DNA of 32,021 bases, from assembly GCA_030595925.1 (NCBI GenBank), contig JAUVLC010000019.1, positions 1 through 32,021 of the forward strand. Reading direction: 5' to 3'. A program made the translations under genes and the position numbers. This stretch comes from Clostridia bacterium (GTDB lineage Bacteria; CBDUZB01; JAGLHV01). Position 1 is the first letter of the stretch. Each line of letters opens with the position of its first letter. The notes beneath the pieces are model-generated. The model saw nothing but the letters and a program-made list of their open reading frames with translations. It ran no database searches and had not been told where the DNA came from. Shown piece by piece: positions 3,584-11,150 of the stretch.

Positions 3584-3737
3584 GGGGGAAACAAAGCTTT
3601 TTATGAAAAGCTAAAACAGACCATAACCTGCCAACCTTAACCTTGATTAAAAACTTCGCACTGTTTCTTTTTACAAGAAACAACTTGATTATTCCGAATC
3701 AAATAAAACAAATATAAATTCGGAAAATATTATCATT

Positions 3738-3776
3738 CCACTAATCTCACAATTTCGATACAAACGGCATTAGTGG
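3738..3776 (-). repeat. 39-bp near-palindrome, copy 1
   Basis: Two 13-nt arms flank a 13-nt loop. The - strand begins CCACTAATGCCGT and ends GTGAGATTAGTGG. The outer 8 bp pair perfectly; the inner arm is more decayed than in the other two copies. It lies 27 nt past the stop of the orphan tonB fragment, exactly as the intact copy lies past tonB. Confidence 0.85.
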
Positions 3777-3802
3777 AAAAGAAGGGTAGTTATAAAAAAT
3801 AT

Positions 3803-4123
3803 TTATTTTGTTTTTAATTCAAAGCAGATTTTTTGGATGCACCATACGGCAACGGGCATACCCATAATTTCAGCCGGCTTAAAACGCCATTTTCGAATTA
3901 CCCTCATTGCTTCCTGCCCAAACTCATATAAACCACCGTTATCCACTAATTTTACCATTGAAACTTTCCCTTCCCGGTCGATAAGAATTTTTAACGTTAC
4001 GATTCCTTCTATATTTTTTGCGATGGCTTCAAAAGAATAATCCGGCTCTCTATATTTTATAAGCTGTGGTAATTGTTCCACTTCGCTTAAATCATAAGTA
4101 AGCATCGGGGCAATTAAATCCAC
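3803..4123 (-). pseudogene. Orphan TonB C-terminal domain fragment
   Basis: The 106 codons encode only the TonB C-terminal domain, including VTLKILIDREGKV, VIRKWRFKPA and the VWCIQKICFELK end. They match residues ~92-197 of the intact TonB (10827-11420) with about six substitutions. There is no transmembrane anchor or periplasmic linker, and the apparent start is a GTG that is a Val codon in the intact gene, so it cannot work as TonB on its own. One change turns the conserved YP of EPDYP into YS, consistent with relaxed constraint. It is best explained as the remnant left when the island entered or duplicated the tonB 3' end. Confidence 0.85.
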
Positions 4124-4214
4124 TTCCAGTTGGTTTCTTTCTTGATTATAGCAATTGAGTTTATCTATATTGATAATGATAATTTTTATATACTTTCCGG
4201 ACTAAAAATAAATA

Positions 4215-5286
4215 TTACAATTTACATCCTGAAATTATTGCCCAATAGTAAAAACTCTCCGGGGATATGGATTTCAATTTATTTAGAATTCTAAATCTGT
4301 CGGTTAAGCTGATAGCTTCAATTTTCTTTATTTTATCATCTGTATATTTTAAATTCCCTAAACCTACATTTAATTTTTTATGCCTTAACAGATAAGCTAT
4401 AAAGGCTATTTTTGCAGAATCAAGTTTTGCATCTAAAATTGTATATTTTCCTCCTATTATATGACTTTTAATTCTTCGAATACCATCTTTAAGTTCCAGG
4501 GTTTTTTCATTACTTACCCCCTTTCTTAAAATCTAATTGAGAGATTAAAAATGATGTCTCTATTGTATCTTCCAAAAATTTATCAATACTGTTACCTAAA
4601 TTTCTATAACCTGCCTCTATTAAAGCAATTTTTTTATAAACTTCGGTTATCTTTCGAATATCTTTGGCAAATGTAAATAACCTGCCTAAATCAAATAATT
4701 GTTTTATAATCTCCATAGACTTATCTTTTTTGTAAGGAATTCCTATAGTATTAGGAGCAAAAGCAGTAAGTTTATCAGATAAAATTGCATCTATCGTTGG
4801 AACTTTCACCAAAATCTCTTTTTCGCATTCAATAAATTCATGTTTTATAGATCTTTTTACTATGTTTTTAAAAGGCACAGTGATATTGAAAATATCTAAC
4901 AGAATATAAGACTCACTTTTTCTCCCTATAGAGGAATAATAATAAAATTTGAAATGCCTTTTAGGAATATTGTGAACTACTTTTCTTTCATTTTCTTCCC
5001 ATTTTTTAAATATTTTGCTTTTTTGAATAAGAGTATCAAAAATCCCTGGTAATTCACTCTCTTTTCTTGCAGTAACAATGTCAACATCGATAGATACTCT
5101 TTTTACCTCGGGTAATAGAATAAAAAGACAGGTTCCTCCTTTAAAAACTAAATCTAACCCATTCAAAACCAACCCGCCCAGTAATGCAGAAGAACAAATT
5201 ACCTTTTCTGCCAATGTAGGATCTACTTTTTTCTTCCTGCTTATTTTAGTTATCCATTCAAGGCTAAAACATTTTTCTTTTATCAT
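4215..5286 (-). pseudogene. AbiEii-family nucleotidyltransferase toxin, frameshifted
   Basis: The first frame (ATG at 5286, SD AAAAAGGA) encodes a polymerase-beta-fold nucleotidyltransferase: GGT with preceding Lys, then RVSIDVD with two acidic metal ligands, and a later SDKLTAFAPNTIGIPY segment followed by KQLFDLGRLF, all typical of PF08843 toxins. It stops at 4510-4512 just after LDFKKGGK. A second open frame continues directly to a TAA at 4215-4217, with residues such as ELKDGIRRIKSHI and DSAKIAFIAYLL that look like the family's C-terminal helical domain. Removing one G from the run of five near 4515-4520 joins the frames into ~355 residues. Family members transfer nucleotides to tRNA or other targets as type IV toxins. 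It is either inactivated, a sequencing error, or a short-run phase variant. A longer GTG start at 5313 lacks a ribosome site. Confidence 0.75.
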
Positions 5287-5300
5287 GATTTCCTTTTTAC

Positions 5301-5339
5301 CCACTAATGCCACTTTTTTTAAAATTGTGGGATTAGTGG
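5301..5339 (+). repeat. 39-bp near-palindrome, copy 3 (inverted)
   Basis: The + strand begins CCACTAATGCCAC and ends GTGGGATTAGTGG around a 13-nt loop, giving 12 pairs of 13 with one G-G mismatch. It has the orientation opposite to the tonB-linked copies. It encodes the last six codons and stop of the AbiEi-like gene (PLIPQF) and fills the gap before abiEii, so it was either inserted there or carries a junction function. Confidence 0.85.
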
Positions 5340-6047
5340 AATTACAACCTTTCTCAAATCTTTATCTATTTTCTTCCTTTCTGCATAATCAAGCATCACT
5401 GAAAGATTTATTCTATAACTATCCATAATAGAGCTAATTATTTTTTTATATTCTTCCGGATCTATAAAATTAAGTTTTTTTTGTTCAACATACAAATCGA
5501 CTAAAATTTTCTCTATACGAGCAAAACATTCTTCTGCCGGACCCCGGGAAACTACGGGCCGAAGGATAATCGAATCCTTTTTAATTTCTACATATTTATC
5601 TATCTCTTTACCCAAAGGATTAAGATAAACATGATAACCTTCATCTGTAAGAAATTCCGCTATATTCGAAAAAAAATCTCTTTCACTATAAATAAAACCC
5701 AAAAAACTCCCTGGAAGGTGATGAAAAAAAATTTTTAATTGTTCTGTACTCCAAACTGAAAATTCAAGCAGGGGAAATTTATTTTTTACTAAATTTGTCA
5801 ACTTTCTTACACATTTAGTATCCAAGACAAATTCTCTATCTATATTGCTATACCATCCTCTTCCAGCTGTAAATATTTTTTCCTCCTTTTTCAAAAGATA
5901 GAGTAACTTTTTTAAACTTTCATTCTTAAATTTTATCTTTCTACTTATTAAGAAATTATTGAGAGAATGTATGCTAAAATATGCATTTTTTTCGGCATAT
6001 GTTGCTATTGTTTGTTTTAATGTATTCTTCTTTATTTTATTATTCAT
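5319..6047 (-). CDS. DUF6577/AbiEi-like antitoxin
   Basis: The 242-residue protein has an N-terminal winged-helix-like part (residues ~8-65, ending in GRGWYSN) and a second domain that begins with FSVWSTEQLKIFFHHLPGS and includes VYLNPLGKEIDKYVE and ILRPVVSRGPAEE. That pattern belongs to the DUF6577 family, which sits next to AbiEii nucleotidyltransferases and acts like the AbiEi antitoxin/repressor of type IV systems. SD GGGAGAG lies 9 nt before the ATG. The gene ends 33 nt before the abiEii start, the order expected for an antitoxin-toxin pair. The last six residues come from the 39-bp palindrome. Antitoxin function is inferred from family and neighbour. Confidence 0.75.
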   Translation of the reverse strand: MNNKIKKNTLKQTIATYAEKNAYFSIHSLNNFLISRKIKFKNESLKKLLYLLKKEEKIFTAGRGWYSNIDREFVLDTKCVRKLTNLVKNKFPLLEFSVWSTEQLKIFFHHLPGSFLGFIYSERDFFSNIAEFLTDEGYHVYLNPLGKEIDKYVEIKKDSIILRPVVSRGPAEECFARIEKILVDLYVEQKKLNFIDPEEYKKIISSIMDSYRINLSVMLDYAERKKIDKDLRKVVIPLIPQF

Positions 6048-6107
6048 TTATTTTCTCTCCCGGCTTAATTATAATACTATTTATCCTTACCAATACTTCA
6101 ACAATAA

Positions 6108-9100
6108 TCATATCTGCGTTCTATACTTTTTAGTCTTATTTATAGCCTCATCTATAGTAATTTCACTTTTGTAGTTAATAAAAAAAGCCTTTTCTATATT
6201 ATCACATTCAACATTAAGGAAATTTACATTATCAAATCGAGAAGATTCTTTTTTAATAAATTTTTGTAATTCCTTTATTACCTTATTAAACTTTGAATAA
6301 TCTTGTAATGCAATATTCTTTAACACATTAATAACTTCTCTATCCAGCGTATCAAATCTATCTTGCTGAATTTCCCGTCCATACTCATAGGAAAATTTTA
6401 ATAATTTAAAAAGTGAAGGAAGGACTTTAATTGTGTTTATTTTTTGAAGAATACCTTTTCTGTATTCAAACTTCTTTTTTCTCGTAATAAAATCAGCATA
6501 ACATCGTATTGCTTCCAAATTTTGTTGTTCAATAAGCAATTTGGCTGATTCTAAGAAAAAGTTCTCATCTTTTGATGACAGTTTATGAATTAATTTTTCT
6601 TTACATTTTTTATTGTTTTGCGTCACAAGAATTTTAGCAGCTTTAGTAAATAATTTCAATTCCTTTATATCCAGTATTTCTTCTAAAAAAGCCCTACAAT
6701 CAGGAAAATTTACCACTGTTTCCAAAGCTAATAATCTATTTCCCATTTCTATTTTTGGATCCTTAACTATACCATATAAACAGTCCCTTGCTTCTTGTAT
6801 TTTATACTTTTTGCAATAATTAATATGATTTTTAAGTACTTGATTAGCCTTAATCTCTTTATTCATATTTTCTAAAATTCTTTCTCTCATTTTTTCAGTA
6901 GGGAGTTTATTTTCGAGGTAATCTATTCCTACAAATTGGGTTCCTTCAATCCAATCAAAAGAGAGCATATCCAATAAGACATCTTCCGGATATTTTAGAT
7001 TAAATTTTATTAAGAAATACCACAAGTCTACAGCCAACTGGTTTTTTGCCGATGTTGTTTTATCTTTTGATACCAAAGCTTCTTTAAAATTAACTTTTTT
7101 AAGATTTTCTAAGCAAAAATTATCAATTATAGATTTTTGTCCTATAGATAACTTTATTTCATTTCCACCATAATAAAGTAAATTAAATATCTGCCGAAAT
7201 GTAAACCTCTTATAATTCCACTGGTCAATTTTTTCTTTTAATTTATTAAATGTCCATTTTTCTTTCCTTTCTTTTGCAAAAAGGAACCGAAGTTCTCGAA
7301 CAACAAATTCGTTATATTTTTTTGTGGAACTATACCTCAATATATCGTCATAATCTAATTCTTTCTTCTTTTCCCCATTAAAAATATTCTCAATTTCTTT
7401 TAATAATTCTTCTCTGTCAAAAATTATTTGAATCTCCTTTTTAATTTTGTCTCTGCGTTCTTTTTCGTAATCCCTCGGGGAAACAGGGGAAGGGATTCCT
7501 ATTTCTTCCCTAATTTTTTTTACTGAGAAGTCAAAATCATTTCCCCTCCAGCTATGCAGACAATTGATGAACAGCAGGAGATTATTCTTTGAAAATTTAT
7601 TATTGCGGTATTCTTGAAGCAAAAAATCAATACATTCTTCATCTGCTATCAATGCTACAAAAGCTAAAAGAGAATAATTATTGTCTATTCCTTCTGCATA
7701 AAGTTCTTTAACAAATTTAAAAGCTGTCCCGGTATTTTGAAAAAATATCTGGAATATAGAAATATCCTTTTTTCTATAACCATATTCCTCATCTACGCTT
7801 CTAATTAATTTTTTTACTTCATTATAAATAGTATTATCCTCTTTATAGGCTTCAATTATATTGTTAACTATTTTTTTCATTGCCCTTTCTATCCAAAAGA
7901 TTTCAAAATCCTGCGGATTTTCAATAAAATAGTTAATAATTTTTCTAATACCCTCAATAGAACTAACTTTTTCTATTCCCTGCACAAGATACCAGCTTTC
8001 GTCTACCAAACGGGTTTTTGTAGAATTAGTCCGTAATCTTGTTTTAGGTATTCCCTCCAGCAAAATATCTACATATCGGTCAGTGTATTTACTTTCTTTA
8101 ATTAGATAATAAAAACCGGATAATATCCAATCATTATTTGAATTTTTGAGTTCTTTAAGAGCATCCATTGTATCCGGTGTAGCCATTTTTAATCGACCCA
8201 AAGCATAAAAACATTGGTGGCGAACATTTAAATTTTCCTTTTCGTCCAATACATATCGAATCAATAATCTTCGCAATGATTCATCTGCCAAATTTTCCAT
8301 TCTTCCCAATATCTGAATTGCATTATATCGATGTGTAAAATGTTTTTTGGAATGAGCAAAGTTCATTAAATAGTCATATATCTCCTTTGTTTTAGTAAAA
8401 TCAGCTAATTTTTCATGGTCAATATTTCTATCAATCCAGATTTTTCTGTCTGTATATTTTTCAAATATTTTTTTAAACAGTTTTACCCTTTTATTTTCAT
8501 CAATCCTGTTTGTTTCAAATTTTAGAGCAAGTTCGGGGTCGTTATTCATTAGATATTTGAGAAAATCGTCTTTTGCTCTCAATTGACATAAAAAAGCCGT
8601 CACATTGACCCATGAAGGAATGATTTTATTTTTTTTATTATATTTAAATAAACCAAGAATTTTTACGATAATTTTACTTATTTTAATTCCAAAACGGTTA
8701 TAATCAATATATTCTTCAACCAACTTTTTTATTGTAATCACCCAATTTAAAGAAATAGGGAAAGAAATAAATTTTAAAATATCGTTCAGACTATTCTTTA
8801 CTAATATCTCTGCCGCCAGATATTCCTGGAAATTATTATGTTGGAATTGGTAAACATCCCCATTTTTAAAAAATGATTTTTTAATTAATGAAAGCTCTGC
8901 TATGATTCTTCGTTTCTTTTTATCGGAAATAATTTTATTGAATTCACTAATGGTAACGAAATTTTTCTGAAGAGTTTCCATAACCAAAGATATATACATT
9001 AGATCCTTTTTTATCTCTGAAAGAGGATACTCTTGCCTTGAATCATCTTTATCCGCAAATTTTTTTTCATCGTTTTGAAGAGCCAAAGATATAATTTTGG

Positions 9101-10331
9101 AAAAGATATCACTTCTCTTTACCGGTATTTTTTTATCCCTTTGATATATCTTAATCAGATGAGTTAAGAAGAAAGGATTTTTTGCTAAATCGAATAACAA
9201 CTGCTTATTCAGTTGAGTTAAGAAAACATCTCTATCCTGATTAAGTAATTTTTGAGTGTATTCTTGAATATCCTCTGAACTAAAAGGTAAAAGATTAAAA
9301 ATGTCCCAATTTTCAAATTGTCCGGAATAGAAATTTGTCCTGCACGCAATGATAAAAGTAGACTTAGCATATTTTTCTGTGAAGTTCTTGATTTTTCTTA
9401 CCGCTATCTCTTTGTTTATCACCTGATCAAACTCATCAAAGAGAAAAACAAGTTTTGATTTATCATAATCTAACAGACTTTTTGATTCCTCGCCGATTTT
9501 ACCTTTCACATAATCTGTCATCTCTTCGTCAACATAGGTGTCCAGCTCAATAAAAATGGGTATGAAATCCTGATTTTCTTCCTCTTTAAATTTGCAAGTA
9601 ACCGCTTTTAATTCCGTACTCTTTCCATATCCGGCATCACTGAGCAAAACTATTCTTTTTGTTCCCTCGGCAATTAAAGTATCGAGGTCAAAAAAACTTT
9701 CTTCCGAAGAAGGAAAATATTCTCCACCTTGGTAATATTCTTCCCTCTTTAACAATTTTCTATCAATATAATTATTATTTATTTTAGTCTTAAGCCCTTC
9801 AAAATATGGAAGTTTGTATATCTCACTTATTTTAGCCTTGCGTTCAGCATTATTTTTTCCTCCATATTCTCTTACGAGTTTATCATTAATCGCTTCTAAC
9901 ACTAATTGAACAAGTTCCTCAGTAGTAGTATATTCCTTTCGCCAATGTCCTTGATTAAAATCGGTTATCTCGCTTAAAAATTCATTTAATCTTTTTTCCC
10001 TATTACTACTGTCTTCAGCTATAAAAATCAAGATAGGAAGTTGATTCCTCTTTGCTTCAATGTATTCTATTTTTACAACAGAACACCCTTGAGGATTATT
10101 CTCTGCCGGGATATAGCCATATTGATTTTTAAAAATTCCAATATAAATATGGCTTTTTCTTATTTCTTCTAAACAAACCTGTCTGGGAGATTCTGACTTA
10201 GCAACAAACGATTCTGCATATACCGACTCCCATGACCGATTTTGGCTAACCGCAGCAGCAACAGCTTTTCTTTCTTCTTTTAAATCATTCATTGTAGAAC
10301 TTATAAAAACCCGTAATTTTGCCATAATCAC
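6108..10331 (-). CDS. DUF4062-NACHT-HEAT STAND ATPase, candidate anti-phage sensor
   Basis: The 1407-residue protein opens with a DUF4062 domain (residues ~4-150; VFISSTMNDLKEER, later SHIYIGIFKNQYGYIP). A NACHT NTPase follows (~225-420): Walker A DAGYGKST at 232-239, Walker B LVFLFDEFD at 294-302 with D299/E300, an ACRTNF sensor at ~329-334, and a winged-helix NPFFLTHLI at 385-393. The P-loop's first Gly is Ser231. The remaining ~950 residues are alpha-helical with HEAT-like units (for example YNAIQILGRM then RHQCFYALGRL), the usual ligand-sensing part of STAND proteins. DUF4062 also precedes NACHT in animal NWD1 and TEP1. STAND ATPases of this shape (Avs, bNACHT) oligomerise on phage proteins and trigger an N-terminal effector. 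Defence is inferred from architecture and the toxin-antitoxin neighbour. The start is GTG 10331 or ATG 10325; neither has a strong SD. Confidence 0.85.
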   Translation of the reverse strand: MIMAKLRVFISSTMNDLKEERKAVAAAVSQNRSWESVYAESFVAKSESPRQVCLEEIRKSHIYIGIFKNQYGYIPAENNPQGCSVVKIEYIEAKRNQLPILIFIAEDSSNREKRLNEFLSEITDFNQGHWRKEYTTTEELVQLVLEAINDKLVREYGGKNNAERKAKISEIYKLPYFEGLKTKINNNYIDRKLLKREEYYQGGEYFPSSEESFFDLDTLIAEGTKRIVLLSDAGYGKSTELKAVTCKFKEEENQDFIPIFIELDTYVDEEMTDYVKGKIGEESKSLLDYDKSKLVFLFDEFDQVINKEIAVRKIKNFTEKYAKSTFIIACRTNFYSGQFENWDIFNLLPFSSEDIQEYTQKLLNQDRDVFLTQLNKQLLFDLAKNPFFLTHLIKIYQRDKKIPVKRSDIFSKIISLALQNDEKKFADKDDSRQEYPLSEIKKDLMYISLVMETLQKNFVTISEFNKIISDKKKRRIIAELSLIKKSFFKNGDVYQFQHNNFQEYLAAEILVKNSLNDILKFISFPISLNWVITIKKLVEEYIDYNRFGIKISKIIVKILGLFKYNKKNKIIPSWVNVTAFLCQLRAKDDFLKYLMNNDPELALKFETNRIDENKRVKLFKKIFEKYTDRKIWIDRNIDHEKLADFTKTKEIYDYLMNFAHSKKHFTHRYNAIQILGRMENLADESLRRLLIRYVLDEKENLNVRHQCFYALGRLKMATPDTMDALKELKNSNNDWILSGFYYLIKESKYTDRYVDILLEGIPKTRLRTNSTKTRLVDESWYLVQGIEKVSSIEGIRKIINYFIENPQDFEIFWIERAMKKIVNNIIEAYKEDNTIYNEVKKLIRSVDEEYGYRKKDISIFQIFFQNTGTAFKFVKELYAEGIDNNYSLLAFVALIADEECIDFLLQEYRNNKFSKNNLLLFINCLHSWRGNDFDFSVKKIREEIGIPSPVSPRDYEKERRDKIKKEIQIIFDREELLKEIENIFNGEKKKELDYDDILRYSSTKKYNEFVVRELRFLFAKERKEKWTFNKLKEKIDQWNYKRFTFRQIFNLLYYGGNEIKLSIGQKSIIDNFCLENLKKVNFKEALVSKDKTTSAKNQLAVDLWYFLIKFNLKYPEDVLLDMLSFDWIEGTQFVGIDYLENKLPTEKMRERILENMNKEIKANQVLKNHINYCKKYKIQEARDCLYGIVKDPKIEMGNRLLALETVVNFPDCRAFLEEILDIKELKLFTKAAKILVTQNNKKCKEKLIHKLSSKDENFFLESAKLLIEQQNLEAIRCYADFITRKKKFEYRKGILQKINTIKVLPSLFKLLKFSYEYGREIQQDRFDTLDREVINVLKNIALQDYSKFNKVIKELQKFIKKESSRFDNVNFLNVECDNIEKAFFINYKSEITIDEAINKTKKYRTQI

Positions 10332-10353
10332 ATATAGACTTTATATGCCTTCC

Positions 10354-10545
10354 TTATTTTTTTCTTCTGACTTTTTTTCTATTGTCATCCAGCCATTTTT
10401 CTAAATCTTTTCTGCGAAACCTCCAATTCCACCCAACTTTAATTGCAGGTATTTTTCCCTGTTGAGCATAAGAATAAACTGTTGTGGTATCCAACTGAAG
10501 ATATTCAGCAACTTGTTTAATAGTAAGCAGTTTTTCTCGTACCAT
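10354..10545 (-). CDS. Excisionase/MerR-type helix-turn-helix protein
   Basis: The 63-residue protein is a single HTH_17 (excisionase family) domain: LLTIKQVAEYLQLDTTTVYSYAQQGKIPAIKVG followed by WRFRRKDLEKWL and a basic tail. SD GAGAGGGG precedes the ATG and a strong promoter lies upstream. It is the first gene of the island operon, with only 22 nt before the STAND ATPase. Such proteins act either as recombination directionality factors or as small repressors. No integrase is present, so an operon regulator is the simpler reading, but an excisionase relic is possible given the bracketing repeats. Confidence 0.8.
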   Translation of the reverse strand: MVREKLLTIKQVAEYLQLDTTTVYSYAQQGKIPAIKVGWNWRFRRKDLEKWLDDNRKKVRRKK

Positions 10546-10581
10546 AATCCCCTCTCAAATTTCACAATTTTGATATGATTT

Positions 10582-10610
10582 ATTTTACTAAAAAAAATCT
10601 TTAGAGTCAA
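10582..10610 (-). promoter_or_regulatory. Sigma70-type promoter of the island operon
   Basis: On the - strand, -35 TTGACT (10605-10610), a 17-nt spacer and -10 TAAAAT (10582-10587) lie ~35 nt upstream of the HTH start codon. Spacing and hexamers are near consensus. No other gene is seen between the HTH gene and tonB. A second hairpin, AATTTTTC/GAAAAATT, lies near 10726-10745. Confidence 0.65.
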
Positions 10611-10746
10611 ATAGTTTCATAAAAAACCATAAAATTATATAATTTCTCATAAATAGTACTGCTATAGAAAAGAGTTACTGTTAATAGGAACAAGTGCAGA
10701 AAAACGAAGTGTTTTTGGTAATCCGAATTTTTCTATTGAAAAATTT

Positions 10747-11150
10747 GGGAAATATTATCATTCCACTAATCCCACAATTTCGATAAAAGCGGCATTAGTG
10801 GAAAAAAGGAGAGTTATAAAAAAGATTTATTTTGTTTTTAATTCAAAGCAGATTTTTTGGATGCACCATACGGCAACAGGCATACCCATAATTTTAGCCG
10901 GCTTAAAACGCCATTTTCGAATTACCCTCATTGCTTCCTGCCCAAACTCGTATAAACCGCCGTTATCCAGTAATTTTACCATTGTAACTTTTCCTTCCCG
11001 GTCGATAAGAATTTTCAACGTTACGATTCCTTCTATATTTTTTGCGATGGCTTCAAAAGGATAATCCGGCTCTTTATATTTTATAAGCTGTGGTAATTGT
11101 TCCACTTCGCTTAAGTCATAGGTAATCATAGGGGCAATCAAATCCACTTC
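10747..11150. repeat. Right direct repeat: 3' end of intact tonB
   Basis: This is the ~404-bp counterpart of 3722-4126, running from the 3' flank (with its 39-bp palindrome) to the codon where the TonB C-terminal domain begins. This copy remains joined to the anchor and linker of tonB, so it is the functional one. Confidence 0.9.
10763..10801 (-). repeat. 39-bp near-palindrome, copy 2
   Basis: The - strand begins CCACTAATGCCGC and ends GTGGGATTAGTGG, with a 13-nt loop. It has 11 Watson-Crick pairs, one G-T and one G-G. The G-T position is a proper A-T in the inverted copy at 5301-5339, hinting that pairing is maintained. It lies 25 nt past the tonB stop. Confidence 0.85.

What the first reader, a model, noticed from the sequence alone, without database searches (positions are those of the whole stretch)
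4127..10746. DUF4062-NACHT-HEAT sensor in one operon with an AbiE-type toxin-antitoxin pair and an HTH protein
The sequence shows four consecutive - strand genes behind one strong promoter: excisionase-type HTH, 1407-aa DUF4062-NACHT-HEAT ATPase, DUF6577/AbiEi-like and AbiEii. STAND ATPases and AbiE are each known anti-phage modules (established). Their linkage in one transcript is, to my knowledge, not a named system. A plausible model is that the STAND protein senses phage and DUF4062 acts as effector, with AbiE as a second layer or a guard of the island (inference). DUF4062-NACHT also occurs in animal NWD1/TEP1, so it may be an ancestral immune architecture.
Basis: partly seen in the sequence, partly recalled or inferred. 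Interest (0 to 1): 0.8.

Follow-up and report, generated by a model that had tools for sequence, protein, structure and literature searches.

The report
Bacterial STAND immune gene beside AbiE toxin-antitoxin
A small insert beside tonB carries an NLR-like immune gene whose front end is a predicted NAD-destroying enzyme related to one in human TEP1; the AbiE toxin-antitoxin pair next to it looks like an unrelated, partly broken passenger rather than a partner.

Summary
The genes are as described: an HTH gene, a 1407-aa DUF4062-NACHT-HEAT gene, a DUF6577 AbiEi and an AbiEii, on the - strand with gaps of 22, 60 and 5 bp. Three points change the reading. (1) AbiEii is frameshifted at a G5 run (4517-4521); about 95 C-terminal residues, conserved in homologues, lie out of frame. 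(2) The AbiE linkage does not recur. None of 12 other loci with the same NACHT-HEAT chassis has AbiEii on its contig, and only one of 45 DUF4062 hits in 32 other genomes has an AbiEii within 10 kb (9.2 kb). Eight further AbiEii copies in this genome lie apart from any relative of the STAND gene. (3) DUF4062 is now a described TIR-like NADase (Swarozyc; TEP1), and the catalytic Glu is present here. Best reading: a stand-alone STAND gene that, when triggered, depletes NAD+ (inferred), sharing a mini-island with an independent AbiE cassette. Its chassis carries other front ends elsewhere (HNH, esterase, PNP, phosphoesterase, SMEK). The island sits at the 3' end of tonB between 411-bp direct repeats; a sister species has the empty site, whose flank is an AbiEi relic. 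It is a new variant of a known kind, not a new four-gene system.

The parts
10354..10545 (-). 63-aa excisionase/MerR-type HTH_17 protein, probable operon regulator
   Evidence: Pfam HTH_17 E 7e-18; NCBIfam MAD1 69.9 bits (cut-off 80)
10582..10610 (-). promoter-like site TTGACT-N17-TAAAAT upstream of the HTH gene (consensus match only)
   Evidence: 10 of 12, but site numbers not above shuffles
6108..10331 (-). DUF4062-NACHT-HEAT STAND protein, 1407 aa
   Evidence: the only such gene in this genome
10053..10313 (-). DUF4062 (TIR-like NADase-type) domain, residues 7-93
   Evidence: Pfam E 7e-21; profile of A5 matches solved KpSwz E 3e-14 and TEP1 E 3e-6; AlphaFold alpha/beta fold with pLDDT 70, pTM 0.70
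10065..10067 (-). predicted catalytic Glu (residue 89 of the ORF; 87 counted from MAKL)
   Evidence: invariant in DUF4062 alignments; same column as KpSwz E97, on the inference that the solved chain is the E97A mutant (with PMC13174449)
9615..9641 (-). Walker A SDAGYGKST, residues 231-239
   Evidence: sequence; GKST conserved in homologues
9426..9452 (-). Walker B LVFLFDEFD, residues 294-302
   Evidence: sequence
6132..8654 (-). long HEAT-type C-terminal sensor region, about residues 560-1400
   Evidence: HEAT_2 E 3e-8 over 654-736; homology to other chassis members through the C-terminus
5319..6047 (-). AbiEi-like antitoxin (DUF6577), 242 aa
   Evidence: Pfam DUF6577 2e-44; PADLOC AbiEi 3e-46
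4510..5313 (-). AbiEii nucleotidyltransferase toxin, truncated frame of 267 aa; motifs I/II (GG-x15-DVD) intact
   Evidence: Pfam AbiEii 4e-17; PADLOC 4e-88
4216..4524 (-). out-of-frame C-terminus of AbiEii; frameshift at the G5 run 4517-4521
   Evidence: homologue L025 matches the window in two frames on either side of the run, and a one-ORF homologue of about 360 aa exists in L026
5301..5339 (-). 39-bp palindrome at the abiEi/abiEii junction
   Evidence: three exact matches in the whole genome, all at this island
10741..11150 (.). right copy of the 411-bp direct repeat: 3' end of intact tonB plus downstream palindrome
   Evidence: 387/411 identical to the left copy
3716..4126 (.). left copy of the 411-bp direct repeat, contiguous with the native downstream flank
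   Evidence: empty-site comparison with L016
10827..11420 (-). intact tonB
   Evidence: TonB_C
3803..4123 (-). displaced 3' fragment of tonB
   Evidence: TonB_C; duplicate of the tonB 3' end
3684..3755 (+). relic of an AbiEi 3' end next to tonB (LDYSESNKTNINSENIIIPLISQF; window AbiEi ends LDYAERKKIDKDLRKVVIPLIPQF)
   Evidence: BLOSUM62 similarity outside the palindrome beats 20,000 residue shuffles; also seen in both sister species

Best explanation
The 1407-aa protein is a one-gene STAND immune receptor. Its HEAT region is the probable sensor, its NACHT domain the ATP-driven oligomerisation switch and its DUF4062 domain the effector, a TIR-like NADase that on triggering depletes NAD+ and stops growth (abortive infection). 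Shown: the domain order, intact Walker motifs and conserved catalytic Glu, and the exchange of front ends on the same chassis in relatives. Inferred: NADase activity, phage sensing and the trigger. The HTH gene probably regulates the operon (inferred). AbiEi-AbiEii is an independent toxin-antitoxin cassette, one of nine AbiEii loci in this genome, that shares the mini-island by accretion; its toxin frame is shifted in this assembly. The island lies at the 3' end of tonB between 411-bp repeats, as left by integration of a circle through shared tonB sequence (inferred).
For: Domain hits. DUF4062 proteins are NADases that protect E. coli from phages, dependent on E97, and TEP1 is an active NADase (PMC13174449). 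The window Glu is invariant and lies in the KpSwz E97 column. Chassis members carry DUF4062 (L099, L102, L109), HNH (L115, and by sequence L086), serine esterase (L112), PNP (L114), metallophosphoesterase (L031) or SMEK (L117). 0 of 12 other chassis-bearing contigs hold AbiEii. Of 45 DUF4062 hits in 32 other genomes, only one has an AbiEii within 10 kb, 9.2 kb away in L081 and not in an operon. Eight other AbiEii loci in this genome lack a relative of the STAND gene. AbiEii frameshift. Direct repeat, empty site and relic.
Against: No activity data. Of four human DUF4062-NACHT proteins purified only TEP1 was active (PMC13174449), so the domain can be silent. No phage trigger is known. The four genes are co-oriented with short gaps, which fits shared regulation. 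The closest relative (L099, 61% identical) has DUF4062 and NACHT-HEAT in two overlapping frames, and its contig ends inside the gene, so the neighbourhood downstream cannot be read.
Confidence: 0.72

Rival explanations
1. All four genes are one layered system: the STAND NADase acts first and AbiE is a second-layer toxin released when the first layer fails.
For: Co-orientation with gaps of 22, 60 and 5 bp; both modules are known defence types.
Against: No recurrence in 12 other chassis loci or 45 other DUF4062 hits; AbiEii frameshifted; the genome's other AbiEii loci stand without a STAND relative; the HTH gene is not seen beside L099, L102 or L109.
Confidence: 0.07
2. AbiE acts as an addiction module that keeps the repeat-flanked island from being lost by recombination between the 411-bp repeats.
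For: AbiE can stabilise mobile elements (PMC3985639); the island is flanked by 94% identical repeats that could delete it; an AbiEi relic marks the same spot in sister species.
Against: The toxin frame is shifted, so addiction may be lost; relics show that AbiE at this spot has decayed before.
Confidence: 0.25
3. The STAND gene is decaying or silent, like the purified human NWD1, NWD2 and NPHP3 that showed no NADase activity.
For: Some DUF4062-NACHT proteins showed no NADase activity in vitro (PMC13174449); the relative L099 is split into two frames.
Against: The window ORF is intact over 1407 codons with all motifs and the catalytic Glu.
Confidence: 0.15

Closest known systems
Swarozyc (KpSwz) DUF4062 NADase
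   Same: DUF4062 domain with the conserved catalytic Glu; profile match to the solved chain E 3e-14
   Different: KpSwz has a short winged-HTH AUX domain that binds the phage portal; here a NACHT ATPase and a long HEAT region follow, so sensing and activation must differ
Human TEP1/NWD1 (DUF4062-NACHT)
   Same: DUF4062 directly before a NACHT ATPase
   Different: WD40 repeats (and TROVE/vWA in TEP1) in place of HEAT; no evidence of common descent of the pairing, and chassis data suggest domain shuffling
Bacterial NACHT antiphage proteins (bNACHT; NCBIfam HyoA and EruA)
   Same: NACHT STAND logic; weak partial matches to HyoA and EruA, E 6e-14 and 8e-13
   Different: 47-51 bits against cut-offs of 1000-1200, so not a member of those equivalogs
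AbiE type IV toxin-antitoxin
   Same: AbiEi (DUF6577 branch) and AbiEii with nucleotidyltransferase motifs I and II
   Different: AbiEii C-terminus out of frame; motif IV reads KQLFD rather than +DxxD (motif as described in PMC3985639)

Membership tests
STAND/bNACHT immune receptor | effector domain + P-loop STAND NTPase + repeat sensor | tested here: met
   DUF4062 + Walker A/B + HEAT_2; nSTAND_NTPase5 is below the Pfam cut-off (24.8 of 34), but homology to NACHT-positive chassis members is clear
STAND/bNACHT immune receptor | phage protection dependent on the ATPase | not testable with these tools
   needs experiment
Swarozyc | DUF4062 domain with catalytic Glu | tested here: met
Swarozyc | KpSwz-type AUX winged-HTH portal-binding domain | tested here: not met
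   NACHT-HEAT follows instead; the full-length protein has no match to the KpSwz chain beyond DUF4062
HyoA / EruA antiphage NACHT equivalogs | score above the curated cut-off | tested here: not met
   50.7 and 47.4 bits against 1200 and 1000
AbiE type IV TA | adjacent AbiEi and AbiEii genes | tested here: met
AbiE type IV TA | full-length AbiEii frame | tested here: not met
   frameshift at 4517-4521; an assembly error cannot be excluded
AbiE type IV TA | inverted repeats for AbiEi at an own promoter | tested here: inconclusive
   only one weak 11-bp pair 5' of abiEi and no minus-strand consensus promoter in the 60-bp gap
MADS | MAD1 HTH above cut-off | tested here: not met
   69.9 bits against 80; other MADS genes not seen beside it

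The most novel reading that the evidence does not exclude
The four genes work as one layered immune unit, in which a STAND-gated DUF4062 NADase is backed by an AbiE pair with a shortened toxin that is also the island's guard.
Probability: 0.06. Interest if true: 0.75.

Novelty: new variant of a known kind. Interest (0 to 1): 0.42.

Why it matters
If right, it is a microbial STAND protein with the same front half (TIR-like NADase, then NACHT switch) as human TEP1 and NWD1. A chassis on which nature swaps effectors gives a direct way to test whether the NACHT switch gates the DUF4062 NADase, a proposal still open for TEP1. It also shows how a tidy four-gene 'operon' can be an accretion of separate modules.

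Tried and rejected
Four-gene system: rejected as the main reading for lack of recurrence. Ancestral DUF4062-NACHT architecture: weakened by the AU test (p 0.033, 15 rows, several long branches, so weak). Site-specific integrase at tonB: no integrase in the island; only an excisionase-like HTH. Searches that led nowhere: viral contigs with the STAND protein, with chassis alignment A3 and with AbiEi found no relatives; alignment A1 gave no usable pattern; genome contigs with A2 found none, while a DNA pattern for HNNF[QK]EYL succeeded. The Foldseek PDB search gave generic Rossmann-like hits including NDT-type N-glycosidases (BcmB, DNPH1) and TIR domains, none specific. Whether AbiEii is a true pseudogene or an assembly slip in the G5 run could not be decided.

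Full report
Observation. The window holds, on the - strand, HTH (10354-10545), a 1407-aa DUF4062-NACHT-HEAT gene (6108-10331), DUF6577/AbiEi (5319-6047) and AbiEii (4510-5313), with gaps of 22, 60 and 5 bp. Families are confirmed by Pfam, NCBIfam and PADLOC. The promoter claim rests on a 10/12 match that is not more frequent than in shuffles, so co-transcription is inferred from spacing.

The effector. A 2026 preprint (PMC13174449) shows that DUF4062 is a TIR-like NADase: KpSwz (Swarozyc) protects E. coli by NAD+ depletion dependent on E97, is triggered by the phage portal, and human TEP1 is active through E1008; NWD1, NWD2 and NPHP3 were inactive in vitro. In the window the Glu at residue 89 (87 from MAKL) is invariant in DUF4062 alignments. 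A profile of eight DUF4062 domains finds KpSwz (E 3e-14) and TEP1 (E 3e-6) among solved chains. The KpSwz chain shows Ala in the column of this Glu; since the paper's structures use E97A, and the numbering fits, I infer that this column is E97. AlphaFold gives an alternating alpha/beta fold at moderate confidence (pLDDT 70); Foldseek matches are generic, with NDT-type N-glycosidases and TIR domains among them.

The chassis. Homologues were found by a plasmid and a phage-record search and by a DNA pattern in GTDB genomes; tblastn and blastp confirmed them. The closest, L099 (record titled Lokiarchaeota MAG; binning not checked), is 61% identical, with DUF4062 and NACHT-HEAT in two frames that overlap by four bases. 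The chassis carries DUF4062, HNH, esterase, PNP, metallophosphoesterase or SMEK front ends (HNH in L086, the Mrr-like label of L113 and the helical front of L005 are judged from sequence only). In a 15-row tree the DUF4062-bearing members fall in two places, and one clade is weakly rejected (p-AU 0.033). This fits effector swapping.

The AbiE linkage. In twelve other genomes in which a chassis gene was placed (G396-G406, G409), AbiEii is absent or on other contigs; several of these contigs are short, so distant linkage could be missed. In 32 other genomes with DUF4062 (45 hits), the nearest AbiEii is 9.2 kb away and opposite in orientation, in what looks like a defence island (G231/L081). The window genome has nine AbiEii loci; the STAND gene is the only one of its kind there, and the ORF lists around the other eight show AbiE genes between ordinary genes (those neighbours were judged from ORFs and not scanned for domains). 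AbiEii in the window is frameshifted in a G5 run: homologue L025 matches on both sides of it in different frames, and L026 holds a full-length one-ORF homologue. Catalytic motifs I and II precede the shift, so a shortened toxin may or may not act (motifs from PMC3985639).

The island. The insert lies between 411-bp direct repeats (94% identical) made of the 3' end of tonB plus about 85 bp with a 39-bp palindrome. In sister species G002 the same place is uninterrupted. G001 has a contig break there and cannot be read through. The palindrome occurs exactly three times in the genome, the third at the abiEi/abiEii junction. In frame, the tonB flank reads like an AbiEi C-terminus in the left copy and both sister species, beyond what shuffles give, so an AbiE cassette probably once stood here in the opposite orientation. 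Integration of a circle through shared tonB sequence would leave this structure; this is inference.

Verdict. The receptor is a good candidate for a STAND-gated NADase, a new variant that joins two known kinds. The four-gene system is not supported.

Noticed in passing
3716-4126 and 10741-11150: 411-bp direct repeats (94% identical) made of the tonB 3' end plus a palindrome flank the island; sister species G002 has the uninterrupted site.
   Followed up: yes
3684-3755 (+) and the same place in L016 and L018: Relic of an AbiEi 3' end next to tonB in all three species of the genus, in opposite orientation to the present AbiE.
   Followed up: yes
5301-5339, 3738-3776, 10763-10801: 39-bp palindrome CCACTAAT...ATTAGTGG found only at these three places in the genome; role unknown (terminator, recombination site or coding relic).
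   Followed up: partly
4517-4521: Frameshift in a G5 run of abiEii that leaves the conserved C-terminus out of frame.
   Followed up: yes
L099:2408-2411: In the closest relative DUF4062 and NACHT-HEAT are separate frames overlapping by four bases, beside an AlbA-like and a SIR2-like fragment; could be real splitting or a sequencing error.
   Followed up: partly
genome G000, contigs C25, C26, C31, C50, C62, C120, C164, C179: Eight further AbiEii loci in a 2.6-Mb genome whose two sister species have one each.
   Followed up: partly
L025:1533-2240: An AbiEii relative in G083 that lacks the middle of the protein, another decayed copy.
   Followed up: no
3595-3678: About 84 bp between shyC and the left repeat that are missing in sister species G002.
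   Followed up: no
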